Assembly (NCBI GenBank): GCA_021300095.1
Contig: JAJTHV010000118.1
Coordinates: 1-64,000 of the forward strand
DNA from: Flammeovirgaceae bacterium
Lineage (GTDB): Bacteria > Bacteroidota > Bacteroidia > Cytophagales > Cyclobacteriaceae
Length of the DNA stretch: 64,000 nt
Reading direction: 5' to 3'
Shown here: positions 23,875-64,000 of the stretch, in pieces
Layout of the letters: every line of letters starts with the position of its first letter
Position numbering within the stretch: the first letter of the stretch is position 1
Translations under genes and position numbers: made by a program
Notes under the pieces: generated by a model
The model's input: only the letters and a program-made list of their open reading frames with translations
Database searches by the model: none
Told to the model about the DNA's origin: nothing

Positions 23875-26113
23875 GCAACTCTTTTACCTTTTTTAGAAAT
23901 TCCTGATCCAACGAGTGAAGTGATTGTTCGGGCTGATTGGCTGCATCCGTTGATCTGGGTAGTACTTTCCAAAATAAATGTTGCAACGCTGCGAGTTGTG
24001 ATTTTAGTTCTAGCGGATTCATATTCGATTCTTCCAAGCGCTTGAGCATCGACAAACCTTCCAGGTATTGGCCGGGTTGTTCTAGCACGAGTCTTGCTAA
24101 TTCTTGTCCCGCGAGTTGGAGTTGTTTCTTTTCAGAGATGGATAGTGTTTGATTATTTTTTTGTTGCCACCATTCAATCATCACCAAGGCTTTTCGAATT
24201 TGTGGAAATGCAATTGTAGAAGTTGTTGGATTACTTTGAGTCGAATTGTGTACTTCACTTAAATCTGCGGTGAGCCGTTTTTCTTCTTTGAGTGGAGGTG
24301 GATCAAAGCCCGTGCGATGAACATAAATTCTTGAATCGTTGCTGATTTCTTTTAGTAGTCGAAGGGCAGTGTATTGATAGGGTAGTGACTTCTCCGGTTG
24401 ATACAATCGTAAATAGAGTTCAGCATCCCACATCACGGTAAGCGCAGCTTTCAGCTTGGCGCGAACGGATTGCACGAAGAAGGTAGCTTGTTCACCATCA
24501 TCATGATTGTGAGCAAAAGCCTCTAATGGATTTTCGGCTTCACCTTTACCCTCACCTCCTTTGTGATCATGTCCATGCGATTCTTCTTTTTTCTCTTGCA
24601 CAAGATTATGTTCATTTTCTTTATCATGTGTGTGGCCAAATTTGGCGACCACACTTTCGTGATCGTCATCTTCCGAGGGGGCTTCCACTTTGCCAATCTG
24701 ATCTTCAAATTCTTCGCCTAAAAATTGACCATATCGCAATCGCAATACCTTTTGATCGTAACCAAGTTCGTTGCTGGTAGATTTGAATTGTTGCAAACTG
24801 ATTTTCTTTTTTTCTTTCAACAGCTTTTCAGTGTCGATGATGATTTGCCGCTGACTGCGGAAATAATCGGGCATTAAATCAACGCCAAGCCCTTCGTCTT
24901 CTACAGCCGTCTGCTGCGTAGTATCCTGCAATGCGATAAAGAAAGTTTCCGTTCGATTGTAATTCGGTGATGGCGTTTTGTTGTCTGTTGCTTCAACATA
25001 GAAATACAATTCATCGCCCGGTTCCATTCCCATTTTCATCAAGTCTATTTGTCGGGTGACTTTTAATTGTTTGCCGCTGATGAGTTGCTCAAACGCTAAT
25101 TTTTCTTCGCGAAACTTAACGGATTCTCCACTGCCCTTGCTGACGGTAGCCACAATGATGGATCGCGATAATCCATAGTCGTCTGATAGTGTTGATTGAA
25201 TTGTGAGTGATAACTTATCGCGTAAAGCAAGCTTGGTAAATTGATTAAGATTGTCAATCGTGATTTTAGGTGGTTGGTCAGCAATGACTTCTATTTTATA
25301 AAAATCAGATCGAGTGACTTTGTCTTTTTGCTTCCATTGAATTTGATAAAAGCCGGATTCGGAAACGAGATAGCTGATGTGATACTCATCACTTGTTTGA
25401 GAGAGTTGAACGGAATCTTTACCGGAGATGATCAATTGTGCTGAAGAAATTTCTGAACTGAATTTTAGCTTCCAGCTGACCTTGCTTCCTTCCGAAACTT
25501 TCAATTCAGGTTGTGTTGCCTCAGTGGATGCGAGGCGCGTGTAAGCCGGTGGCGTTACTTGTATAAAGAGAGATTGAATGCGAGCCGTTTCAGTTGGGGA
25601 TGTAGTGATTTGTGAAGCAAGGTTTACTTTATTCATTTCAATCGGATTGACCGATACAAACGAAGTAAGTGCCAGATACAACATTGAAACAACTACAACA
25701 GATATAACTGACTGAGGTAAAAGATGTGGTAATTTGATTTGGGGAAATAGAAGATGAAAACGCTCGGTTATTCTTTGAACTTGCAATTGCGCTAATCCAT
25801 GTAGATTGTTTGGATTTTCTAACAACAAATCGGCACTGTGTTCTAGTTGTGGATACTGTGCATTCAGATAGCTCGTAAACTGTTCATCTTCGAGAGAGAA
25901 TAATTTTAAGTGAATGATTCTTATGAGGAATGCAATCAACATCGAAGCTATGATCAAACTTATTTTTAATACAGGTTTATTGGAACAAACATGTAGAATC
26001 GAAGCCGCTAGTATTCCCGTGGCAACTGCAAACAACGCACTTTCAATCAGCCGATAGATCTGATATCGCCTTTTAAGTAGTTGAATGCTATGGTTCACAG
26101 GCGTCTTGCTCAT
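23867..26113 (-). CDS. DUF4175-family membrane protein with His/Asp-rich insert
   Basis: 748 residues from ATG 26113, chosen because it overlaps the previous stop as ATGA; the frame extends to 26290 but that part lies inside the BatA-like gene. Two N-terminal helices (about 18-60) and a third (about 135-155) precede a beta-rich region (SAQLIISGKDSVQLSQT) and a helical C-terminal half. Residues about 474-537 form a charged, His-rich stretch with HTHDKENEH, HGHDHKGG and HNHDD, which could bind metal ions. DUF4175 proteins of Bacteroidota occur in MoxR-DUF58 operons; their function is unknown. Confidence 0.78.
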   Translation of the reverse strand: MSKTPVNHSIQLLKRRYQIYRLIESALFAVATGILAASILHVCSNKPVLKISLIIASMLIAFLIRIIHLKLFSLEDEQFTSYLNAQYPQLEHSADLLLENPNNLHGLAQLQVQRITERFHLLFPQIKLPHLLPQSVISVVVVSMLYLALTSFVSVNPIEMNKVNLASQITTSPTETARIQSLFIQVTPPAYTRLASTEATQPELKVSEGSKVSWKLKFSSEISSAQLIISGKDSVQLSQTSDEYHISYLVSESGFYQIQWKQKDKVTRSDFYKIEVIADQPPKITIDNLNQFTKLALRDKLSLTIQSTLSDDYGLSRSIIVATVSKGSGESVKFREEKLAFEQLISGKQLKVTRQIDLMKMGMEPGDELYFYVEATDNKTPSPNYNRTETFFIALQDTTQQTAVEDEGLGVDLMPDYFRSQRQIIIDTEKLLKEKKKISLQQFKSTSNELGYDQKVLRLRYGQFLGEEFEDQIGKVEAPSEDDDHESVVAKFGHTHDKENEHNLVQEKKEESHGHDHKGGEGKGEAENPLEAFAHNHDDGEQATFFVQSVRAKLKAALTVMWDAELYLRLYQPEKSLPYQYTALRLLKEISNDSRIYVHRTGFDPPPLKEEKRLTADLSEVHNSTQSNPTTSTIAFPQIRKALVMIEWWQQKNNQTLSISEKKQLQLAGQELARLVLEQPGQYLEGLSMLKRLEESNMNPLELKSQLAALQHLFWKVLPRSTDAANQPEQSLHSLDQEFLKKVKELHE

Positions 26114-27318
26114 TGATTTTTTCGATAAGCTACCCATCGCTCGAGCATAAATACAAGCAACAATAAGACGAACAGATAGTAGTTGAAATGATTTTCGATG
26201 ATAACATCGGACACAACACCAGATGAAGTTGTGCTTTGTAAAAATGAATCTGGTAACGCACGTCTGTCGTGGTGCCGAATGCTTTTCCATTTTTCAGTTT
26301 CAGGAATTAAAATAGAAGCAAGATGTAAGGTGAAGTTTGTTTCTTCCATAAATGATATGGAGAGACGCTTCCTCATTGCCCATTGTTTAAAACCAACTGA
26401 CTTTAAAATGGCTGATCCTGATTCTGGATAAAAGAACACAACTGAAGCGGAATCAATTGTAGGGACTTTTTTATTTGATAACCAAAAGAGCCAATCACTG
26501 GAATCGGATTTGTAATTGCCTGAGTTTAGTTGTTCGATCGTGAGCTGAATCGGTAATTTTTCTTGAATAGCTTGGAGAGATGCTTTCAATAAGCGTGCAT
26601 CATTTTCAAAAGCTTCATCAGCTACGATCAATACCGTTTGCTGTAAAATGTTTTTTGTCTCTACAGAGTCAATTGCATTCGCTGCGTGAATAGTTTCGAA
26701 TTCAGTCGCATCAGATGAAAATGTTCCCAGACGAATAAAATAATCATTATTCGACTTTTGAAGTGCTTCTGCTACGAAGTGCTGTTCTATTGCCGGAAGC
26801 GTGATCCATTGAATCGAAGCAGGAAGTGATTCGCGCATGCCAACAAATTGTTCAACACCGGACGCAGAGAGCACAATTACTCTTTGCAACTCGCGCTGAC
26901 GAAGCAAAGCTATGCTTTCCCAATAATTTTTAGATGTTACAGAAGGTTCTTCTTTCGGAAACCCATCCGCCAGCCAGTGCAATTCAAACCCTTGCGCCCG
27001 TAAACTATCCATCCACTTTTTTGCTATCGGATGATTTTTGACGGACTGATCTACCACCAACCACTTTTGATTTTTAGTTTGATCAAATTGTAGACCACTC
27101 AGCAACATCGCCCAAAGCACAACGATCAGGCAACGAAGTGCCAGCAGCAACCATTCATTCAGCCGAATGCTTTTAAATTGTTGTGTGCTCTTCTCACGCA
27201 CATGCCGAAGGCTTCCCAACCGAATTACTTTTCCTTCTTTCTTGCTGAGCAAATGAATGGCAATCGGAACAGATAGTCCGGCCAACGCCCACAAAAATAT
27301 CGGTTGCGCGAATTGCAT
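26110..27318 (-). CDS. BatA-type N-terminal domain protein (aerotolerance/MoxR operon)
   Basis: 402 residues. The N-terminus (FLWALAGLSVPIAIHLLSKKEGKVIRLGSL, a helix followed by a HLL turn, then a second helix at about 56-76) is the BatA/'aerotolerance regulator N-terminal' double-helix domain. A vWA-like soluble domain without a visible complete MIDAS motif follows, and a C-terminal helix ends just before the tail. It should sit in the inner membrane and work with the MoxR ATPase and DUF58 protein. Its start overlaps the DUF58 stop by one base. Confidence 0.8.
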   Translation of the reverse strand: MQFAQPIFLWALAGLSVPIAIHLLSKKEGKVIRLGSLRHVREKSTQQFKSIRLNEWLLLALRCLIVVLWAMLLSGLQFDQTKNQKWLVVDQSVKNHPIAKKWMDSLRAQGFELHWLADGFPKEEPSVTSKNYWESIALLRQRELQRVIVLSASGVEQFVGMRESLPASIQWITLPAIEQHFVAEALQKSNNDYFIRLGTFSSDATEFETIHAANAIDSVETKNILQQTVLIVADEAFENDARLLKASLQAIQEKLPIQLTIEQLNSGNYKSDSSDWLFWLSNKKVPTIDSASVVFFYPESGSAILKSVGFKQWAMRKRLSISFMEETNFTLHLASILIPETEKWKSIRHHDRRALPDSFLQSTTSSGVVSDVIIENHFNYYLFVLLLLVFMLERWVAYRKNQ

Positions 27319-28214
27319 TACCTCACTAGACGTTTACGTTGAGTTAAAAAATTTCGCAACACTTCGTCAATGGCGAAATCCATCGACACCAATTGGTAAT
27401 TAATTTGTTTTTCCAACATCCAACTGCGCGAAGCACTCAGCCACAAATTCACTCTTGTCTGGTAATCACTTTGTTGTGCACGACTGTCGGCTTTTGTTTT
27501 GATTCCTGTTTCTAAATCCTCGAAAGTAAATGAACCATCAAAATCAAAGGCTGTTTCGTGAATGCCCATCAGATGAAACACAATCACTTCGTTGCGTTTG
27601 GTTTTTAATCGCGAAATGAACTTTTGTAAATCTTCGCTGTCATCGTACAAGTCGGTGATGAAGACGATCATTTCTTTTCCGTGGTGATCGTAAAGCTGCT
27701 CGATATTTTTAGATTGATCCCAACCACCTTCGCCCGTTACTTTCACCAGCTCCGTGAGAAATCGAATGAACTGTTGTTGTTCAAAGCGAGGTAATACCGA
27801 TTTGATTGAATGATCATTGACCGCATACAAACCAAAAGTATCACCCTGCTTGCGCGCGAGGTACGCCAATGCAGCCATCATCACTTTAGCGTACTGCAGT
27901 TTACTCACATCGCCTTCGCTGTAGGCCATCGAGCGACTTGCATCAAGCATGAACTTAACGGTGATGTTCGTTTCAATTTCTGCTTCTTTGATGTAGTAGC
28001 GCTCGGTGCGCGCAAACATTTTCCAATCGAGTTGACGCAAGTCATCGCCCGGCTGGTAGTTTCGGTATTGACTAAATTCCTGTCCGACACCAACCGATTG
28101 ACTTTTGTTGCTGCCGCTCATAAAGCCTTCTACAATTACACGCGCAATTAACTCTAATCCGCTGATGGAATTCAGCAGCGAAGGCTTCATTAATTCTTTA
28201 ACTTGGGAATTCAT
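27318..28214 (-). CDS. DUF58 domain protein (MoxR partner)
   Basis: 298 residues. The signature GVGQEFSQYRNYQPGDDLRQLDWKMFART (about 42-70) defines DUF58, and it is followed by a vWA-like domain with DASRSMAYSEG (MIDAS-type DxSxS) at about 92-102. DUF58 proteins are regular partners of MoxR ATPases, thought to be clients or adaptors in chaperone-like complexes. Its ATG overlaps the toxin stop as ATGA, while the expected upstream neighbour, moxR, is separated by a toxin-antitoxin pair. Confidence 0.88.
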   Translation of the reverse strand: MNSQVKELMKPSLLNSISGLELIARVIVEGFMSGSNKSQSVGVGQEFSQYRNYQPGDDLRQLDWKMFARTERYYIKEAEIETNITVKFMLDASRSMAYSEGDVSKLQYAKVMMAALAYLARKQGDTFGLYAVNDHSIKSVLPRFEQQQFIRFLTELVKVTGEGGWDQSKNIEQLYDHHGKEMIVFITDLYDDSEDLQKFISRLKTKRNEVIVFHLMGIHETAFDFDGSFTFEDLETGIKTKADSRAQQSDYQTRVNLWLSASRSWMLEKQINYQLVSMDFAIDEVLRNFLTQRKRLVR

Positions 28215-28828
28215 CTACACTTTGATATAATTTCATTCTTTACGTTTTCCCAATTAGTTGAATAGGGTGCTATCCCTTTTATATCAACATCCTCTTCAGC
28301 GTCCGAAAAATAAGTGATGCTTTTCCATAAAAAGAAGAGTTGGGATTCACCATACTTTTGTTTGAACCATATTACTAATTGATCCCAACTGTATAATTGC
28401 AGCAATGCATATAGATCAAAAAAGTCTTTCTTTTTTCCTCGACCACAGATGGTATGCAATTTCATGGCCGCAATGTCAGGTACTGAGTAAAGTTTTACAT
28501 TTTCTATTTCAATAAATGGCTTAATTAAAGGAAAGGGCTCATGCACAAAGTCGCACTTAACTTTATTGATATTACAAAAAAGCATTCTTTCGCTTTTGCC
28601 CATGGCTTCATACGTAAATGATCGATAGTCAAACAACAAGTTTTCAATTTCAGTAGGTATGAATGAGTTGGGTGAAAATAGATCAAGATCAATAGATCTA
28701 CGATGACCAATTTGTAAGGCTAAAGACGTTCCCCCTGCAAGGGCAAACCTTTCGCTGATGAAGGGAATTTTGAAAATATCAACGAGTAAGCCAAACGTTT
28801 TTGACTCAATGGTAGAATGATGAAGCAT
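28211..28828 (-). CDS. AbiEii/AbiGii-type nucleotidyltransferase toxin
   Basis: 205 residues. The nucleotidyltransferase motif is complete: FALAGGTSLALQIGHRRSIDLDLFSP (GG...S.DxDLF, about 28-53). The downstream catalytic block is IAAMKLHTICGRGKKKDFFDLYALL (about 119-143). AbiEii-family toxins (type IV toxin-antitoxin or abortive infection) inhibit growth, with tRNA nucleotide addition shown for some members. The gene overlaps its antitoxin-like partner by 23 bases upstream and the DUF58 gene by 4 bases downstream. It is AT-richer than the MoxR operon genes around it, which fits insertion by transfer. Confidence 0.85.
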   Translation of the reverse strand: MLHHSTIESKTFGLLVDIFKIPFISERFALAGGTSLALQIGHRRSIDLDLFSPNSFIPTEIENLLFDYRSFTYEAMGKSERMLFCNINKVKCDFVHEPFPLIKPFIEIENVKLYSVPDIAAMKLHTICGRGKKKDFFDLYALLQLYSWDQLVIWFKQKYGESQLFFLWKSITYFSDAEEDVDIKGIAPYSTNWENVKNEIISKCR

Positions 28829-29075
28829 GAAGTTCGTTTTGAGGTATTTGAAAGTACCAACTACAGAAGTGACGTGTTTTAGGATCTAATTCTTTTGATT
28901 TTTTTACCTCTGTTATTATTTCGGCTTTATTGTATAGTGTTAACAACTTTTCAAAATCCTCCATTCGCCCTCGGGTAAGGACACGTTCAATTACGTAACG
29001 TTTATGTTTCTGCAAATCCACGTCTCGGATGTCTACATCCCAGAATAAATTTTGTGAGAATGGGAATTTATCCAT
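28806..29075 (-). CDS. Probable antitoxin partner of the AbiEii-type toxin
   Basis: 89 residues. The pattern FPFSQNLFWDVDIRDVDLQK, then KRYVIERVLTRGRMEDFEKLL, is that of small DUF6922-like proteins that are encoded directly before AbiEii nucleotidyltransferases in Bacteroidota. It overlaps the toxin start by 23 bases, and 77 bases separate it from moxR, enough for an own promoter. Antitoxin function is inferred from context. Confidence 0.7.
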   Translation of the reverse strand: MDKFPFSQNLFWDVDIRDVDLQKHKRYVIERVLTRGRMEDFEKLLTLYNKAEIITEVKKSKELDPKTRHFCSWYFQIPQNELHASSFYH

Positions 29076-29152
29076 TTGCGACTAAATAAAATTAAAATCA
29101 CAGTATTCGACTTGTCAGGTAGTAACTCTTTCGTTTATAAAATTAACAATTG

Positions 29153-30160
29153 TCAAATACTTTTTCTTACGATTATATTTTCTAATAAATGTTTGGTCAC
29201 TGCATCGGCTGTGATCCCTTCGGATTCTGCTTTGAAGTTCATCAGAATACGATGACGCAACACCGGATATGCTACTTGCTGTATGTCTTGTTGCGTTACC
29301 GCAAAGCGGCCACTCAGCAACGCACTTGCTTTGGCGGTGAGAATCATGGCCTGGCCTGCGCGTGGACCTGCACCCCAGCGCACCCATTCGTTTACATACG
29401 CTACATCACTCACACCGGCACGTGTCGAGCGCACAATGTTGCTCACCCACTCAATCAAATCCGAACTGATATGCACCTCGCGCACTAATTTTTGTGCTTC
29501 TAAAATCTTCTTGCCTTCCATCACCTTGTGAATGGCCTCGCCTCGCTTGCCGGTAGTGTTTTCTAAAATGGCTCGCTCTTCAGTAGCAGTTGGATAACTT
29601 ACTTTGATATAAAGCAGAAAGCGATCCAGTTGAGCTTCCGGAAGTGGAAAGGTTCCTGCCTGCTCAATGGGGTTTTGTGTAGCAAGAATAAAGAAAGGTC
29701 GCTCCAGCGGATAGGTGACGCCTGCGTAAGTCACTTCAAACTCTTGCATGGCTTCAAGCAAAGCCGCTTGTGTTTTGGGAGAAGTGCGGTTGATCTCATC
29801 TGCCAGAATGATGTTGGCAAATACTGGACCTTTGTTGAATTTGAAAATGCGTTTGCCCGTGGTGTGATCTTCTTCCAGCACCTCCGTGCCGATAATATCC
29901 GATGGCATTAAGTCCGGAGTAAACTGAATTCTGCGAAAGCGTAAATCAATTGCTTCGGAAAGCGAACGAATCATCAGCGTTTTGGCCAATCCGGGAACTC
30001 CCTCTAACAACGCATGACCGCCTGCCAAAAAAGTAATCAGCAATTGGTCGATGATTTCTTCTTGTCCGACAATCACCTTTTTGATTTCTTTTTTCAAGCC
30101 GTTGAGGCTGGCAATAATTTCTTCGACTGATTGTTGAGTGGATGTTGATTCTGAATTCAT
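29153..30160 (-). CDS. MoxR-family AAA+ ATPase
   Basis: 335 residues. Walker A is GVPGLAKT (about 54-61), Walker B IILADEINRTSPKTQAALLEAM, sensor 1 FILATQNPIEQAGT, and the arginine finger region PEAQLDRFL. The MoxR helix-2 insert is followed by the C-terminal lid domain (VAYPVLRHRILMNF). It is a cytosolic hexameric chaperone-like ATPase working with DUF58 and BatA-type proteins on membrane or periplasmic processes. Second gene of the operon, 2 bases after the DUF4159 stop. Confidence 0.92.
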   Translation of the reverse strand: MNSESTSTQQSVEEIIASLNGLKKEIKKVIVGQEEIIDQLLITFLAGGHALLEGVPGLAKTLMIRSLSEAIDLRFRRIQFTPDLMPSDIIGTEVLEEDHTTGKRIFKFNKGPVFANIILADEINRTSPKTQAALLEAMQEFEVTYAGVTYPLERPFFILATQNPIEQAGTFPLPEAQLDRFLLYIKVSYPTATEERAILENTTGKRGEAIHKVMEGKKILEAQKLVREVHISSDLIEWVSNIVRSTRAGVSDVAYVNEWVRWGAGPRAGQAMILTAKASALLSGRFAVTQQDIQQVAYPVLRHRILMNFKAESEGITADAVTKHLLENIIVRKSI

Positions 30161-57897: not shown

Positions 57898-60609
57898 ATG
57901 GACGTGCCCCAGAAACAGGTATTGGAATTTATTGCACGCCTGGCCTATAATATCCCCGGTTTATCGGGTGAGTTGAAACTTTATTTTAGCCAGTTTTTGA
58001 CGGCTCATTTTTCAAAAACCCTCTCCAAGGAACAAATCGAAGATATTGAAAATAGAAGAGCATCTTCCGTTATCACGGAAGAGGAAAAGAACAAAGTGGC
58101 TCGCTCTTTTTCATTCGAAGATAAGGCATGGTGTATTGCCGCTTTGGGCCGGCTACAAGATCAGGCTGAGAAAGTAGATGATCGAATTCTATCTCGCAGA
58201 ATAGGAAAACTGATTGAAGAGTTAACTGCTTTATTTGGTCTAAGCGAGCAGCATGGTTTGATTCAAAAAGAAAAAGATCAAATCGAACAAGAGATTCTTG
58301 CCTTTCAAAATCGTCTGGTAATAAAAATTGAAACCAAGATTTGGCCCATTGCCTTAGACTATGTTATTCGATTTGCTTTCCTACTTAGCTTTAGCTTTTG
58401 GGATGTGAAAAAGGACTATTTAGCTCTGCTTAATATTTTGTTTATCCCTATTGTCACACTTGTTGCTGTGTATATCATTGGCAAAGTACATAAAAGGGCC
58501 AATCTAAAATTACTGGATACCTATGGCGGAGCGGCCATGTATAAAATTGAATACAGCGTTTCTGTCAGTCAATATACTTGGCTTGCGTTTTTTCTTAGTT
58601 CGAGTATTTTCATTAGCTATCTATTACCCGATCGGCTGCATATCTTGGCTTTGTTCGGATTAAGTTTTTACTATTTTCTATATCTCCGTTATTTCCGAAT
58701 TGGCCGCTTAGGTGAGAATGACTTAGTACGACAATTAGAGAACAAAGGATTGGATACAAGAAAACTTACCGTAGATGAGAATGACGAAGTAATTGTAGCC
58801 CTAGAGACAAAACTAAACTCGGCCACCAGTCGATTGGAGGCATACGTTTTAGAGAGCGCACTGTTTGGCGCTTTGACGTTCAGCGGATTTTTGCAAATTA
58901 TGGCTACAGATTTGGTTTCGTTTAAAGACTTAGAAGATTTTGCTTCCTACATTTTTTCTACCGCACAAGCATTTATTCATTTAGATGGGGCTCAGTTTGA
59001 TGCAGGCATTATCGGACTTAGCAATAAGAAAAGTTTGTTTTGTCTGGTGTCTGCTCAAAGTTTGATTTGCTCCATTTTCTTTTTGGCAGTAATTTCATCA
59101 CGTCTTCGTTTCAGCGACATCGCAGATAAAGTGCGAACTGCTTTAAACTTGGCGAAAGCTTATAATACCAAAGAGGAGGTGCTGCATGATGAACAGGAGA
59201 TTTCAGGGAAGACTACCAAGCGACTGGAACTATTAACCGCCAAGGTAAACGAACAGTTGCGTCAAGCCACACTCGCACTAGAAGAGATTAGCCCGGTGAT
59301 GCAATACATGGAATACTTTCGAAATGCAGGTATTCTCGTTTTTTTAATAATCCTTATTAGTAGCAGTCTATTTATTACGAGTATTTTGGGATGGACATTT
59401 TTGGCGCTCACGGTTGCTACCTATCTGTATTTCAATAGGTCGAAGATCAACACGCGCATAAAGTCATTTTTCCTCAGTTTCCGAATTGCATTTATTAAAC
59501 AGGGCTATTGGCTCTTCGCTGCTACAATACTTCCACAGGTGTTGGCTTTTGTGTTGCGTTTATTTTTTCATGTAAGAGATACCAATTTTCTGTTTGCCGT
59601 AAGCTATTTCTTAATGGGTCTTTATGTATTTGCCTGGCTGATCTTGGCTGCTCACGTAGACGAACAGTTTGGAGAGATTGAAGTAAGCAAGAGTGAGCAG
59701 ACCCGCTTAAGTAGATGGAAGTTTTTTAAAAATATTCTGGCTGTTTTAGTCTTAATAGGAACTATCGGCCTTACCCTTAAACACCAACATTTACAAGGAG
59801 CAAACGAAATGCTAATCCTTAGCCTTGGCCTTATTGGCACATCCATGTTTTTCATAGGTTATTATTTGACCAAGACAAAATGGATTGGTATTATTTGTGG
59901 TTGGGTAATGTCGGTAAGTAGTGTAGGAGCATTATTCAAATTACTCCATTTCGAGGGAGCAGAAGAAATGCGTTTAATTGGGATTAGCTGTGCGATGGTA
60001 ATGGTACCACTTATCGTGTGGAAGCGTAAAACATTTCATTCTTTAATGATTCGGTTTTGTGTAGCAACTATTTTAATCGGCATTTACTTTTTGCCCATTT
60101 TTGAAATACCCAAATTGAAATTGCAGATAGCCTACGACCATGAAACGTTTGATACAAATGAGATTCTGGGTGTGTTTGAAAAAAACAGTGCCGACTCTTT
60201 TCTAGAGCACCGCGACAAAGCTCTGGAGGAAGGCATAACTAAAAGTGATTGGTATATTCAGCAATATGGAATGCGCTATGGATTTACAGAGGTTTATCGG
60301 ACTTTAGCAGTGGAATATTACGATTTTGCAAGCGCTGCATTGGAATCAGTAAAGACAAGCAATAAGAATGACACTACTTTACTTCCTCTTGCGCTAAAGG
60401 CGATTAAGCAAGAATATAAAATCATAAAACTATTTAATTTCAAGTTACTAGCGTTTAACCTAGAATTAGAACCAGATATTTTAATGGCGATGGGAAGAAG
60501 AGAAGAAGCCATTGAGTCGCTAGAAAGAATTATTCCCCAGTTAGTTTATGATGATAATAAAGAATACCTAAAAGAAAAACTTAAGGCTATCAAAGAACAA
60601 AACCCATAG
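57898..60609 (+). CDS. Large polytopic membrane protein with GldL-like motif repeat, unknown function
   Basis: 903 residues. Residues 1-145 are soluble and helical; membrane helices lie at about 150-195, 225-265, 315-340, 380-400 and 475-575, with a coiled-coil stretch near 410-465. At about 612-710 there are two successive units, LTLKHQHLQGANEMLILSLG and ALFKLLHFEGAEEMRLIGIS, which match the FK..H..GA..M helix-turn motif known from the gliding protein GldL and other Bacteroidota membrane proteins. Residues about 745-903 look TPR-like (LMAMGRREEAIESLERI). I do not recognise the whole protein. It is a single gene upstream of proC. Confidence 0.7.
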   Translation: MDVPQKQVLEFIARLAYNIPGLSGELKLYFSQFLTAHFSKTLSKEQIEDIENRRASSVITEEEKNKVARSFSFEDKAWCIAALGRLQDQAEKVDDRILSRRIGKLIEELTALFGLSEQHGLIQKEKDQIEQEILAFQNRLVIKIETKIWPIALDYVIRFAFLLSFSFWDVKKDYLALLNILFIPIVTLVAVYIIGKVHKRANLKLLDTYGGAAMYKIEYSVSVSQYTWLAFFLSSSIFISYLLPDRLHILALFGLSFYYFLYLRYFRIGRLGENDLVRQLENKGLDTRKLTVDENDEVIVALETKLNSATSRLEAYVLESALFGALTFSGFLQIMATDLVSFKDLEDFASYIFSTAQAFIHLDGAQFDAGIIGLSNKKSLFCLVSAQSLICSIFFLAVISSRLRFSDIADKVRTALNLAKAYNTKEEVLHDEQEISGKTTKRLELLTAKVNEQLRQATLALEEISPVMQYMEYFRNAGILVFLIILISSSLFITSILGWTFLALTVATYLYFNRSKINTRIKSFFLSFRIAFIKQGYWLFAATILPQVLAFVLRLFFHVRDTNFLFAVSYFLMGLYVFAWLILAAHVDEQFGEIEVSKSEQTRLSRWKFFKNILAVLVLIGTIGLTLKHQHLQGANEMLILSLGLIGTSMFFIGYYLTKTKWIGIICGWVMSVSSVGALFKLLHFEGAEEMRLIGISCAMVMVPLIVWKRKTFHSLMIRFCVATILIGIYFLPIFEIPKLKLQIAYDHETFDTNEILGVFEKNSADSFLEHRDKALEEGITKSDWYIQQYGMRYGFTEVYRTLAVEYYDFASAALESVKTSNKNDTTLLPLALKAIKQEYKIIKLFNFKLLAFNLELEPDILMAMGRREEAIESLERIIPQLVYDDNKEYLKEKLKAIKEQNP

Positions 60610-60631: not shown

Positions 60632-61429
60632 ATGAACACGAAGAAAATTGCCATCATTGGCGGAGGAAATCTGGGCATTGCGATGGCCGAAGGATTATTG
60701 AAGAGTGGTTTTGCCAAACCGGCTCAACTCACAGTTACACGAAGAACCTTGTCGCGCCTGCAACCACTGCGGGAAAAAGGTGTAACCATCACGGATAACA
60801 ACGAAGCCGCTATCCGCGAAAGCGAGATAATCATTGTGGCGCTCAAGCCCTTCAATGTAAAAGAAGTATTGACGGGTTTGAAAAACGCCTTCGATCCGAA
60901 GAAGCACATTATTATAAGTGTGGTGACAGGAATTTTTTTGAAAGACCTTTCCGAAATTTTCACGGCACCGCTTCCCATTTTTCGGGCCATGCCCAATACG
61001 GCCATTGCTATTCAGGAGTCGGTTACGTGTATGTGTGCGCAGGGTGCTTCCGCAGAACAATCGGCTTATGTAAAAGAATTGTTTGATCAGATGGGTGTCA
61101 CCATTCCTATTGACGAAAAGTTGATGGACGCAGCCACGGTGTTAGGTGCTTGTGGCATTGCCTATGCACTTCGCTTTATCCGAGCTGCTACGCAGGGTGG
61201 AATTGAAATTGGATTTGATGCCAAAACAGCCAGCCTGATTGCCGCACAAACGGTGAAAGGCGCGGCCGAACTTTTATTGAAAGGCAATAACCATCCGGAA
61301 GAAGAAATCGATAAAGTTACTACCCCGAAAGGCTGCACGATTGTAGGTCTCAATGAAATGGAGCATCGCGGATTTAGCTCTTCGCTAATCAGAGGCATTG
61401 GTGCTTCGTATCATAAGATTAGTAATTAA
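60632..61429 (+). CDS. proC: Pyrroline-5-carboxylate reductase
   Basis: 265 residues. It reduces pyrroline-5-carboxylate to L-proline with NAD(P)H, the last step of proline synthesis. The Rossmann start is IAIIGGGNLGIAMAEGLLKSG, the middle part VALKPFNVKEVL and IFRAMPNTAIAIQESVTCM, and the C-terminal signature VTTPKGCTIVGLNEMEHRG corresponds to the family pattern. It starts 22 bases after the large membrane protein gene. Confidence 0.95.
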   Translation: MNTKKIAIIGGGNLGIAMAEGLLKSGFAKPAQLTVTRRTLSRLQPLREKGVTITDNNEAAIRESEIIIVALKPFNVKEVLTGLKNAFDPKKHIIISVVTGIFLKDLSEIFTAPLPIFRAMPNTAIAIQESVTCMCAQGASAEQSAYVKELFDQMGVTIPIDEKLMDAATVLGACGIAYALRFIRAATQGGIEIGFDAKTASLIAAQTVKGAAELLLKGNNHPEEEIDKVTTPKGCTIVGLNEMEHRGFSSSLIRGIGASYHKISN

Positions 61430-61506: not shown

Positions 61507-62154
61507 ATGAGTTTGAAACCTAAGGAAAATTATTTTTTAAACATGATAAAGTCACTTCGCGAAAGCGAGGAGGTGATATTGTATTATAAAAACATAACAT
61601 TCAGCCCGGATGAAGATCAGATGGTGGTGGATTTTTTGAAATCACAATACGAGGAGGAGAAAATGGATTACCCGGATAGTCCTCCGGAATATGATGAGGT
61701 AGCTGCTTTGTGGGCGGCCAAGACGGTGTATGTGGCGGCTCAATTAATTTTGTTTCGTCAGGATAAGGAGGAAACTTTAAATAATTTATTTCTTCCGATT
61801 CACATCCCCACTACACCCGGCTCAATTTTGTCAGCTGATTTGTGTTTGCGATTTTTGCCGGAGATGATAAAGAATTTAAAGGCCATTGATAGCGAAGATC
61901 TATTGATTGATTTGTTGGAGGAGAGATTAAAGAAATGGCACTACTCTTCGGTTAATTATCCCTTGCGTATTGAAGAATTAGATTTTACGGAAGTGTACGC
62001 AAACGCCTGCTTGCAGCATCTTTATTGCGACCGCATTATCCGATACAAAAATTTACCATTGGCATTGATTCCGTTTTTTAAAAGTAAGGTACAGGCGCAA
62101 ATGGGCTTATATGGAAAAGAATTTTGGAGTGAATTTCAATTACATGTCTCATGA
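61507..62154 (+). CDS. Accessory protein of a MoxR-type ternary system (bpX-like)
   Basis: 215 residues, all helical and acidic. The pattern PPEYDEVAALWAAKTVYVAAQLILFR, then SILSADLCLRFLPEM and HLYCDRIIRYKNLPLA, resembles the bpX-type helical proteins encoded with MoxR and vWA/beta-propeller proteins in the so-called MoxR-vWA-beta-propeller ternary systems. I cannot assign a bpX number. It overlaps the MoxR gene by 4 bases. Confidence 0.6.
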   Translation: MSLKPKENYFLNMIKSLRESEEVILYYKNITFSPDEDQMVVDFLKSQYEEEKMDYPDSPPEYDEVAALWAAKTVYVAAQLILFRQDKEETLNNLFLPIHIPTTPGSILSADLCLRFLPEMIKNLKAIDSEDLLIDLLEERLKKWHYSSVNYPLRIEELDFTEVYANACLQHLYCDRIIRYKNLPLALIPFFKSKVQAQMGLYGKEFWSEFQLHVS

Positions 62155-63281
62155 TGAATAGTGCTGAAAAGTTTGATCGCGTATTGAGTTACGTTAAAAA
62201 TGCCTTTGTTGGTAAAAATGAAATTGTTGATTTGCTGGGCATATCGTTGATAGCAAAAGAAAATGCCTTTTTGCTAGGGCCACCCGGCACAGCCAAAAGC
62301 GCTATCGTACGACATCTCTCTTCCTGCATTCAGGATGGAAAAAACTTTGAGTACCTGTTGACTCGCTTTACCGAGCCAAACGAAATTTTTGGACCATTCG
62401 ATATTCGGAGGCTGAAAGAAGGCGAGCTGGTAACGAATACGGAAGGCATGATGCCGGAAGCTTCGCTCGTGTTTCTGGATGAAATTTTTAATGCGAATAG
62501 TGCCATTCTCAATAGTTTGCTGATGGCGTTGAACGAACGCATTTTCAGAAGAGGCAAAGAAACGAAAAAACTACCCGCACTGCTTTTTGTAGGAGCCAGC
62601 AATTTACTTCCCGAAGATGAGGCGCTGAATGCGTTGCTCGATCGTTTTCTAATTCGCATTCGCTGCGATTATGTGGATACAGATTTGTTGGAGCAAGTAC
62701 TATTGGCCGGATGGAAGCTGGATGCAAATCAAACAGACAAACCAACCATAACGCCTGCTGAAATTATTGAGATGCAGCAAAAAAGTAAGTTGGTAGACCT
62801 CTCACCCATTCGAAAGCAGTATGTCGATTTGGTACACAATCTTCGAAGTACAGGCGTAAAAGTATCGGACAGACGAGCGGTTAAAATTCAAAATCTGCTA
62901 GCTGCCAGCGCGCTGATCTGCAATCGCGATGCGGCCATTGTTTCCGATTTGTGGGTGTTGAAACACATTTGGGACACAGAAGAGCAAATTGAAATTTTAG
63001 CTGGAATTGTCGATGCCGTCATTGAAAAGGATCAATCACCACAGGCGCATCCGCAAGCGCATTACAACCGAATGCCCAATGCCGAGGAATTAATGAAGGA
63101 AGTTGAGCTTCTGAAAACAAAGTGGTCGGCAGAAAATTTATCGTTTGAAGAAAAGAATGTATTGAAAGACAAATTGCGTTATGTACAAAACAGAAGCAAC
63201 TGGGTGAAGAAAAGTGAGCACAAGCAATTTATTCAGAATGAAATCGATCAATTATGGCAACTCATGCTTCAGACAGTTTGA
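62151..63281 (+). CDS. MoxR/RavA-like AAA+ ATPase of a ternary system
   Basis: 376 residues. Walker A LGPPGTAKSAIVRHL (about 43-57), Walker B ASLVFLDEIFNANSAILNSL (about 102-121), sensor 1 LLFVGASNLLP and arginine-finger region ALLDRFLIRIRCD. The C-terminal lid and helical tail (about 270-376) resemble RavA-type MoxR proteins. It is distinct from the MoxR ATPase at 29153. The neighbours on both sides, joined by overlaps, look like the specific partners of ternary-system MoxR proteins. Confidence 0.85.
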   Translation: MMNSAEKFDRVLSYVKNAFVGKNEIVDLLGISLIAKENAFLLGPPGTAKSAIVRHLSSCIQDGKNFEYLLTRFTEPNEIFGPFDIRRLKEGELVTNTEGMMPEASLVFLDEIFNANSAILNSLLMALNERIFRRGKETKKLPALLFVGASNLLPEDEALNALLDRFLIRIRCDYVDTDLLEQVLLAGWKLDANQTDKPTITPAEIIEMQQKSKLVDLSPIRKQYVDLVHNLRSTGVKVSDRRAVKIQNLLAASALICNRDAAIVSDLWVLKHIWDTEEQIEILAGIVDAVIEKDQSPQAHPQAHYNRMPNAEELMKEVELLKTKWSAENLSFEEKNVLKDKLRYVQNRSNWVKKSEHKQFIQNEIDQLWQLMLQTV

Positions 63282-63988
63282 TTTATTATGCATGCTTGCC
63301 TGTAGAACGAAAACTCGATTTGGCCTCCATTCGTCATTGGGATAATTTGAAATTGGCTGCAGATAGCGGAGAAATTTGGGTGAAGGGCTTTACAGATTTT
63401 CAAATCATTTCCAAAGAGGTCAAATCCATTCCAATCAAAAGTTTGTACTTCGAAAGGGATGGTCACTTATTTCCTCTGGGCAGTAGCTTACCGGCTCTGG
63501 TAGTACCATCTCTTCTTTGGTCGCCTATTGATCGGGCTTTGCCAATTGAATTGCCTTCATTCAATCATAATTTTTTTGGAGTCGATCAGTCGATTTCACT
63601 TCAATTGGTTGTTGATTCTGAAGAACGCGAAGCCTATGCCATGAAAGTAAATCTTCATGACTTAGAAATGTATTTAACCAATGCTTCGCAGATACGTTTG
63701 GAAAAAATAAATTGGCTAATCTTGAATTCGACACAAGCGCTCGTAGTCGGCAAACCGCCATTGCCTATTCCGGGAAATGCGTATTGGCCTTTCGGTCAGT
63801 TTTTATTGCCAGGCGGCTATCATTTTGACTTGCCTATCTTAGCAAAAGCCTTAGCACAGAAACTGAATCAACAAAAGACAGATTGGATTTTGTGGGATGT
63901 GAATAACACCTACTCATTCATTTTACAATCCAGCTTCATGCCTTTATCGCGCAGTTCGTTTCGAAACACATTTTCAAAAGTGATTTGA
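63254..63988 (+). CDS. Second accessory protein of the ternary system (bpX-like)
   Basis: 244 residues. It begins within the MoxR gene (28-base overlap); a TTG start at 63278, which overlaps the MoxR stop, is an alternative. The sequence SLIYYACLPVERKLDLASIRHW, WVKGFTDFQ, LYFERDGHLFPLGSSLPALVVPSLLWSPIDRALPIELP and the downstream ALAQKLNQQKTDWIL have the outline of the mixed alpha/beta bpX proteins. Function unknown; a substrate-recognition or scaffold role is inferred. Its TGA overlaps the next ATG (TGATG). Confidence 0.6.
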   Translation: MATHASDSLIYYACLPVERKLDLASIRHWDNLKLAADSGEIWVKGFTDFQIISKEVKSIPIKSLYFERDGHLFPLGSSLPALVVPSLLWSPIDRALPIELPSFNHNFFGVDQSISLQLVVDSEEREAYAMKVNLHDLEMYLTNASQIRLEKINWLILNSTQALVVGKPPLPIPGNAYWPFGQFLLPGGYHFDLPILAKALAQKLNQQKTDWILWDVNNTYSFILQSSFMPLSRSSFRNTFSKVI

Positions 63989-64000
63989 TGGAACAGGCTA
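63988..64000 (+). CDS. Start of the next operon gene, cut by the window end
   Basis: ATG GAA CAG GCT A follows with a one-base overlap (TGATG) to the previous stop. Only four residues are visible, so the family is unknown; by context it is expected to be a further ternary-system component such as a vWA or beta-propeller protein. Confidence 0.4.

What the first reader, a model, noticed from the sequence alone, without database searches (positions are those of the whole stretch)
61507..64000. Start of a MoxR-type ternary operon at the right edge
Three tightly overlapping genes (4-base, 28-base, then 1-base overlaps) encode a small helical protein, a RavA/MoxR-like AAA+ ATPase and an alpha/beta accessory protein, with another gene beginning at 63988. 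The accessory sequences fit the bpX-type partners of MoxR-vWA-beta-propeller ternary systems, which have been proposed from comparative genomics as NTP-dependent conflict systems. The effector part lies beyond the window.
Basis: partly seen in the sequence, partly recalled or inferred. Interest (0 to 1): 0.65.

Follow-up and report, generated by a model that had tools for sequence, protein, structure and literature searches.

The report
Complete beta-propeller MoxR–vWA operon
The window ends inside a complete five-gene bacterial machine of a known but apparently untested kind, a ring-shaped ATPase with a propeller-bearing partner, and its relatives often keep company with a type of retron, an anti-virus system, which gives a first concrete hint of what the machine may work on.

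Summary
The proteins at 61507-62154, 62151-63281 and 63254-63988 are bpX4, bpMoxR and bpX2 (Pfam E 7.1e-71, 4.5e-100, 4.6e-76). The two missing genes follow on the same contig: a 767-residue bpX0–(vWA-like)–propeller–bpX1 protein and a 574-residue bpX3–TPR protein. [quoted passage not shown] 2020, PMC7159879), so the operon is a new member of a known kind. All five genes keep this order in 78 of 83 loci examined. The operon is patchy (3 of 148 genomes of its family) and sits in a slot that holds other genes in a sister species. No recognised effector was found, so the conflict role is unproven. A new lead: full-length type XIII retron SWIM proteins occur in 15 of 49 genomes with the operon against 6 of 145 family genomes without it. 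Retron XIII or related WGR–SWIM genes lie within 10 kb in 10 of 83 loci. One unrelated defence family shows no such link. Shared lifestyle or defence clustering is not excluded.

The parts
61507..62154 (+). bpX4 protein, 215 aa, accessory subunit
   Evidence: PF19920 E 7.1e-71, residues 9-210 over the full profile
62151..63281 (+). bpMoxR: RavA-like MoxR AAA+ ATPase, 376 aa, P-loop GPPGTAKS
   Evidence: PF20030 E 4.5e-100; 38% identity to E. coli RavA over 296 columns; P-loop printed
63254..63988 (+). bpX2 protein, 244 aa, accessory subunit
   Evidence: PF19918 E 4.6e-76
63988..64000 (+). first bases of the vWA-like/propeller subunit (767 aa from the TTG at 63985, runs to contig position 66288); followed outside the window by bpX3-TPR at contig 66278-68002
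   Evidence: ORFs in L007; bpX0 E 9.4e-34 at 31-181 and bpX1 E 6.6e-15 at 681-762; bpX3 E 2.1e-39 and SNAP/TPR in the 574-aa protein
60632..61429 (+). left flank, proC (pyrroline-5-carboxylate reductase), one edge of the slot; not part of the system
   Evidence: TIGR00112 223.9 bits; same neighbour of a different cassette in a sister genome

Best explanation
A complete five-gene beta-propeller MoxR–vWA ternary operon: bpX4, bpMoxR, bpX2, bpX0-(vWA-like)-propeller-bpX1, bpX3-TPR. Shown: the gene content, the order, the P-loop, and, in models of homologues, a propeller and a TPR solenoid. Inferred: the MoxR proteins form a RavA-like hexameric ring. The propeller subunit docks on the ring through the strongly conserved, flexible stretch just before its vWA-like domain (window-genome residues about 225-300). 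The ring then uses ATP to remodel a client held by the propeller and the alpha-SNAP-like TPR arm, with bpX4 and bpX2 as fixed structural subunits. The most likely setting is response to invaders: the operon behaves as an exchangeable cassette. The best present clue to the client is its recurrent association with WGR–SWIM modules, including type XIII retrons.
For: Pfam hits for six bp-system families over the five proteins (bpX4, bpMoxR, bpX2, bpX0, bpX1, bpX3). Five-gene order in 78 of 83 loci. P-loop GPPGTAKS, the GXXXTAKS variant Kaur et al. give for this class. AlphaFold2 model of the vWA-subunit homologue L016: mean pLDDT 83, helical N-terminus, Rossmann-like strand/helix order from residue 299, propeller. 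Model of the bpX3-TPR homologue L018: pLDDT 79; four of the six Foldseek hits at E <= 0.001 are chains of NSF–alpha-SNAP or Sec18–Sec17 complexes, by length the SNAP chains. MoxR is 66-81% identical to the window's across loci while the partners are about 25-52%. Patchy: 3 of 148 family genomes and 10 of 395 phylum genomes; absent from all 3 other same-genus genomes searched. The same proC–oxyR–rlmL slot holds four unrelated genes in G137. Retron association: with control.
Against: No PADLOC model is hit by the system's five proteins beyond one weak AAA+ match (E 0.002). No effector domain was found. vWA homology was not confirmed: no Pfam hit, no PDB hit, hhalign to E. coli ViaA probability 0.07%. 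The second MIDAS Asp is not conserved, judged by eye. Horizontal transfer is not proven: the AU test does not reject a clade of the three family members (p 0.124). The window's own operon is not beside its retron: they lie on different contigs. In most of the 83 loci no retron XIII or WGR–SWIM gene lies within the fetched flanks.
Confidence: 0.62

Rival explanations
1. A housekeeping assembly chaperone in the style of RavA-ViaA: the operon matures or repairs a cell-envelope or redox complex and has nothing to do with invaders.
For: MoxR is RavA-like (38%) and very conserved. No effector domain. In the window the neighbours are ordinary genes (proC, OxyR-like, RlmL-like), and no PADLOC family apart from DEDDh, QatD and retron parts matched more than two members of either batch of 250 flanking proteins. 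An OxyR-like regulator lies 26 bp downstream, though the sister genome has that neighbour without the operon.
Against: Patchy at species level (0 of 3 other same-genus genomes, 3 of 148 in the family), an exchangeable slot, and co-occurrence with retron XIII SWIM proteins.
Confidence: 0.25
2. The operon and WGR-SWIM modules (type XIII retron, or the shorter WGR-SWIM pair without a neighbouring RT) form one functional network: the MoxR machine loads, unloads or resets the WGR-SWIM effector complex.
For: Full-length SWIM_XIII in 15 of 49 genomes with the operon against 6 of 145 family genomes without (Fisher p 2.9e-6) and 3 of 10 against 3 of 385 in the phylum sample (p 2.3e-4). At least 10 changes on the operon tree, so not one lineage. 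Near in 10 of 83 loci in several arrangements, e.g. 39-63 bp tail-to-tail (L040, L042-L044), RT 185 bp upstream (L022), short SWIM 2-5 bp away (L036, L039), and 88 bp co-directional in L150. The window genome itself carries a WGR-SWIM-RT XIII set (L147).
Against: 34 of 49 genomes with the operon lack full-length SWIM_XIII and 28 lack any match, so neither requires the other. Nine of the 10 loci with a near copy are Flavobacterium. The arrangement is not fixed. The family background is not matched for order or habitat, and the Fisher tests ignore kinship. The >500-bit threshold was set after seeing the gap in scores. In the window's own family only 1 of 3 genomes with the operon has it.
Confidence: 0.25
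3. The association only reflects lifestyle or shared islands: large-genome environmental Bacteroidota collect both.
For: The full-length background is 6 of 145 in the window's family against 3 of 385 in the phylum sample, so lineage matters; the Flavobacteriales neighbourhood also holds RNA ligases, an exonuclease and slipin. The window genome itself also carries a Zorya-type protein.
Against: The Zorya-type control (PF15611) is not enriched: 1 of 49 against 3 of 145. One control family is not many, and the PADLOC lists are capped, so other defence genes in the flanks are under-reported.
Confidence: 0.4

Closest known systems
MoxR-vWA-beta-propeller ternary systems (Kaur et al. 2020, PMC7159879, subsystem 4; Pfam bpMoxR, bpX0-bpX4)
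   Same: All the Pfam families above, the GXXXTAKS P-loop, a propeller C-terminal to a divergent vWA-like part, the helical N-terminal domain, the beta-rich C-terminal domain, Bacteroidota host, a TPR component
   Different: The TPR component here has no hydrophobic segment and its modelled homologue shows no propeller, whereas the paper says the third component typically has both; no L12/ClpS-like insert in the 767-aa subunit (by length and inspection only)
RavA-ViaA of E. coli
   Same: MoxR ATPase of the RavA type (38% over 296 columns) with a partner protein encoded downstream
   Different: ViaA relation not detectable in sequence here; the E. coli ravA-viaA locus shows no further partner genes
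VMAP, iSTAND and FtsH ternary systems (Kaur et al. 2020)
   Same: MoxR-vWA core idea
   Different: No VMAP, iSTAND or FtsH family hit among the operon's proteins and the neighbours scanned
Type XIII retron (PADLOC RT_XIII, WGR_XIII, SWIM_XIII)
   Same: Often in the same genomes and sometimes adjacent
   Different: A separate gene set; the operon itself contains no RT, WGR or SWIM protein

Membership tests
MoxR-vWA-beta-propeller ternary system | MoxR AAA+ of the bpMoxR family with the GXXXTAKS P-loop | tested here: met
   PF20030 333.3 bits; 335.6 against 55 for the next place in the genome; GPPGTAKS
[quoted passage not shown]
   Model of the L016 homologue (A3 profile aligns to the window genome's protein over 759 columns): residues about 470-625 match propellers, Z up to 10.8, rmsd 3.5 over 118 residues. 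Fold only; the blade count was not measured
MoxR-vWA-beta-propeller ternary system | vWA domain in that component | tested here: inconclusive
   No Pfam or PDB profile hit; hhalign to ViaA probability 0.07%, though the best alignment falls on its DTSGS motif. Model shows a Rossmann-like strand/helix order from 299; the first Asp is in 33 of 33 rows, the second is not conserved, as the paper says of a subset
MoxR-vWA-beta-propeller ternary system | N-terminal helical domain (bpX0) and C-terminal beta domain (bpX1), in about 62% per the paper | tested here: met
   bpX0 117.5 bits, bpX1 55.1 bits
MoxR-vWA-beta-propeller ternary system | third component with variable N-terminus, membrane segment, TPR and propeller (the paper says 'typically', so not strict) | tested here: inconclusive
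   Against: in the bpX3-TPR protein the highest 19-residue hydropathy is 0.70 and the model of the L018 homologue shows no propeller. For: TPR present (SNAP 27.4 bits). That this protein is the paper's third component was assumed, not shown
MoxR-vWA-beta-propeller ternary system | optional conserved linked genes with unique domains | tested here: met
   bpX4 238.5 bits, bpX2 256 bits, bpX3 135.4 bits
Biological conflict (defence) system | protects against an invader or kills the infected cell | not testable with these tools
   Needs phage assays; no PADLOC model for the system
Biological conflict (defence) system | patchy distribution and exchangeable location | tested here: met
   3 of 148, 10 of 395, slot with other contents in G137
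RavA-ViaA | ViaA-type vWA partner | tested here: inconclusive
   hhalign probability 0.07% over 82 columns

The most novel reading that the evidence does not exclude
The beta-propeller MoxR machine is the ATP-driven remodeller of WGR–SWIM effector complexes. In some hosts these complexes are armed by a type XIII retron and in others stand alone, so two sets of genes catalogued separately are one defence network whose trigger is nucleic-acid damage or a reverse-transcribed signal.
Probability: 0.2. Interest if true: 0.78.

Novelty: new member of a known kind. Interest (0 to 1): 0.45.

Why it matters
The beta-propeller class is the one Kaur et al. call enigmatic because it shows no conventional effector. 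The operon described here is complete, compact and in a slot whose alternative content is known, so it can be tested. The link to WGR–SWIM modules and type XIII retrons, if it holds in matched genomes, names a first candidate client and gives a directly testable pairing. If it does not hold, the operon remains an ordinary member of a catalogued but apparently untested family.

Tried and rejected
Horizontal transfer between phyla: locus L016 is labelled Glaciecola amylolytica, which NCBI places in Gammaproteobacteria. Its 16S gene is only 79-81% identical to E. coli's (the two places listed) and its neighbours look like Bacteroidota genes to the eye, so the label is doubtful and the case was dropped. 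L027 ('Williamsia' MAG) was not used for the same purpose; no 16S was found in the genomes of L027, L047 or the window.

Transfer within Bacteroidota: the free tree puts the window's operon with L012, L014 and L018 (SH-aLRT 99) and the two same-family copies elsewhere, but the AU test does not reject one clade (p 0.124), so this is not claimed.

Faster evolution of partners as a sign of conflict: the partners do diverge more than MoxR. The planned control with another MoxR cluster (window 21-31 kb against L020) failed: two of the nine window genes matched a counterpart there, at 40% and 25%, and orthology is unclear.

Conserved 28-base overlap as regulation: see the observation check; not claimed. 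No Rfam family reached its threshold in L007 2000-12000. Promoter-like sites were near the chance number (19 against 15.2, sd 3.2) and terminator-like sites were 4 against 6.5, so no promoter or terminator is claimed.

Defence islands: searches list only the 25 families with most members (of 114 and 73), so they cannot say how many flanks hold some defence gene; a draft claim that most loci lie outside defence islands was taken out.

Dropped before counts: L031 (its RT scores best as types XI/XII) and L019 (its WGR protein is a helicase-nuclease) were taken out of the 12 loci, leaving 10. One search was given 48 of the 80 loci plus G002 and G112; Chryseobacterium and its kin were thinned; L058 was not held, so 49 genomes were searched. 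The phylum count of 15 'any' matches includes one very weak one (G171, 17.5 bits). In the tree count, one row (L055) had not been tested for SWIM_XIII and was counted as lacking it. Searches scanned 250 of 254 selected flanking proteins (at least 170 aa, up to four a side plus inserted genes, 43 of 44 chosen loci). That (148 genomes; 395) used the same genomes is judged from equal numbers and shared handles.

Absence in print: Kaur et al. has no whole-word WGR, SWIM or retron in its main text ('retrons' occurs in the DGR passage shown). Searches for retron with WHSWIM (none), with WGR and SWIM (none), for type XIII retrons (one paper with the phrase 'retron type XIII', not opened), for retron with MoxR (Kaur et al. 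and one jumbo-phage paper, not opened) and for two of retron, WGR, SWIM domain, HEAT-ARM (one grape paper) showed no paper linking them, judged from listings. The library lacks many journals and supplements were not readable, so this shows little. Papers seen: PMC7159879, sections 8 and 22 whole, outline and passages; PMC10907252 and PMC11090510, passages; all others, search listing only. The retron type numbering comes from PADLOC names; its source paper was not read. That QatD is TatD-like is recalled.
Full report
What is there. The three ORFs named in the finding exist at the stated coordinates with overlaps of 4, 28 and 1 bases. Pfam identifies them as bpX4 (E 7.1e-71), bpMoxR (4.5e-100) and bpX2 (4.6e-76). 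A 767-residue protein (contig 63985-66288) carries bpX0 at 31-181 and bpX1 at 681-762, and a 574-residue protein (66278-68002) carries bpX3 at 2-171 and a SNAP/TPR region at 327-446. An OxyR-like LysR regulator, an RlmL-like methyltransferase and an S10 peptidase follow.

What the parts look like. bpMoxR is 38% identical to E. coli RavA over 296 columns and has a P-loop of the unusual GXXXTAKS type that Kaur et al. report for this class. AlphaFold2 models of homologues were made, because the tool folds only proteins of the window and of certain loci. The propeller subunit (from L016, mean pLDDT 83, pTM 0.45) has a helical N-terminal domain, a Rossmann-like part from residue 299, a propeller at about 470-625 (Z up to 10.8, rmsd 3.5 over 118 residues) and a beta-rich end. 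Residues 226-325 are the most conserved of the whole subunit (25-residue windows of 0.73-0.84 against a mean of 0.49), yet the part before the Rossmann-like domain is modelled as disordered (pLDDT below 50 in most of 240-295). That is what one expects of a docking segment that orders on the ATPase ring (inference). The vWA identity of the Rossmann-like part is not confirmed by any profile search; the first metal-binding Asp is in 33 of 33 rows, the second is not conserved. The bpX3-TPR protein (from L018, pLDDT 79, pTM 0.54) has a beta N-terminal domain, a disordered middle and a TPR solenoid, for which four of six Foldseek hits at E <= 0.001 are chains of NSF–alpha-SNAP or Sec18–Sec17 complexes. 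TPR matches are generic, so this is a hint only. The window genome's copy has no membrane-like segment and the model shows no propeller, unlike the 'typical' third component of the paper.

How general it is. A scan of one genome per species returned 80 loci (178 confirmed relatives, the best 80 kept). With the window and two same-family loci that makes 83. Strictly counted, 78 of 83 hold all five genes in the same order, some with extra genes inserted. Of the other five, L012, L038 and L066 lie at contig ends, L056 has one gene obscured by an overlapping ORF in my gene picker, and L023 appears to suffer from both. MoxR is 66-81% identical to the window's, the partners about 25-52%. Outside Flavobacteriales the flanks share little between loci.

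Mobility. The system is in 3 of 148 genomes of the window's family, in none of the 3 other genomes of the genus that were searched, and in 10 of 395 of the phylum sample. In the sister genome G137 the same neighbours (proC 83%, OxyR 88%, RlmL 83%, S10 peptidase 92%) enclose a different four-gene cassette of about 3 kb; in G017 proC is next to rlmL directly; in G094 proC and the oxyR-rlmL pair lie on different contigs. So the operon sits in an exchangeable slot. Gain and loss cannot be told apart, and transfer is not proven.

A new association. Several loci had reverse-transcriptase, WGR and SWIM genes beside the operon, which PADLOC identifies as type XIII retron parts: RT_XIII 622.8 bits in L022, WGR_XIII 1078.7 in L034, SWIM_XIII 757.8 in L040. 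The window's own genome has a WGR–SWIM–RT set on another contig (SWIM_XIII 789.7 bits; L147). Scores for SWIM_XIII fall into two groups. Full-length ones (over 500 bits) have an RT and a WGR neighbour in the loci I read in full (L034, L147, L148, L153). Shorter ones (pieces of about 70-230 bits) have a roughly 840-1040-residue WGR1037-like neighbour and no RT beside them in L036, L149, L150, L151 and L155. Counts: full-length in 15 of 49 genomes with the operon and any match in 21 of 49; in the window's family full-length in 6 and any in 10 of 145 genomes without the operon; in the phylum sample full-length in 3 of 10 with and 3 of 385 without, any in 6 of 10 and 9 of 385. Fisher tests give p 2.9e-6, 4.4e-8, 2.3e-4 and 1.9e-7 in that order; they ignore kinship. 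On the operon tree the full-length trait needs at least 10 changes among 16 positive rows of 48, so it is not one inherited block. Physical linkage within the fetched flanks of up to 10 kb: 10 of 83 loci (after removing two): L022 and nine Flavobacterium loci, in several arrangements, plus L150 outside that set. As a control, the Zorya-type EH_Signature family is in 1 of 49 genomes with the operon and 3 of 145 family genomes without it, no enrichment; the window genome, not among the 49, has one. Among 250 flanking proteins, the PADLOC families matching more than two members of a batch were DEDDh (7, the generic RNase T-like exonuclease), WGR_XIII, SWIM_XIII and HEAT-ARM_XIII (3 each) and QatD (3); the RT models matched two members in each batch, some of these other RTs or pieces of one. 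In Flavobacteriales the neighbourhood also holds RNA ligases, an RNase T-like exonuclease, a phosphoesterase, a slipin and an endonuclease V-like gene, several of them enzymes of RNA handling.

Mechanism, and how sure. Identity as a beta-propeller ternary operon is close to certain. That it is an ATP-driven remodelling machine follows from MoxR biology as reviewed in PMC7159879 section 8 and is likely. That it serves conflict is plausible, from patchiness, the exchangeable slot and the retron association, but no experiment was seen in the listings. That its client is a WGR–SWIM complex is a new, testable suggestion at about one in four or five.

Comparison and novelty. Kaur et al. predicted this class from comparative genomics; Pfam carries its families. 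The operon is a new member of a known kind. The link to WGR–SWIM modules was not found in print in the searches named under Tried and rejected, but the supplements of the key paper and many journals could not be read.

Noticed in passing
window 57898-60609: A 903-residue membrane protein upstream of proC (66 hydropathy windows above 1.6) has no relative in the three other same-genus genomes searched; only weak GldL_N and TPR hits.
   Followed up: partly
window 26110-30160: A second, classical MoxR cluster: AAA_3 MoxR, DUF58 and BatA N-terminal genes; its MoxR also passes the bpMoxR cut-off (44.8 bits), which shows that cut-off is loose.
   Followed up: partly
L147 6440-13030 (same genome, contig C342): WGR-SWIM-RT type XIII retron set in the window's own genome, followed by a DUF1508 gene.
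   Followed up: yes
G000 contig C295:1096-2313: A Zorya-type EH_Signature protein (196.7 bits) in the window's genome.
   Followed up: no
L106 4311-7175: In the sister species the proC-oxyR slot holds DUF4389, DUF4870, M48 peptidase and one unassigned gene (weak GtrII match below cut-off) instead of the operon.
   Followed up: partly
L019 2427-7886: A 1819-residue DUF4011-helicase-MTES_1575 nuclease-WGR protein near the operon, another WGR protein of possible defence type.
   Followed up: no
L049, L054, L063, L064, L065, L067, L080, L086, L087 between bpX4 and MoxR; also L152: Extra genes inserted inside the operon in 9 of 83 loci, all Flavobacteriales by label, and in L152; one (L063) is weakly like DUF4919 and one (L049) weakly like an M50 peptidase.
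   Followed up: partly
L017 16084-16584, also L016, L036, L039, L049, L154: An endonuclease V-like gene recurs next to or near the operon (5 of 83 loci, and L154), in L017 with no gap; Pfam hit in L017.
   Followed up: partly
L036, L039, L049 and Weeksellaceae loci: The bpX3-TPR component is split or followed by a second related gene, mostly about 340 residues, in 43 of 83 loci.
   Followed up: no
L158 (record CP034120.1, the record of L016): The record called Glaciecola amylolytica has a 16S gene only 79-81% identical to E. coli and is possibly a mislabelled member of Bacteroidota.
   Followed up: partly
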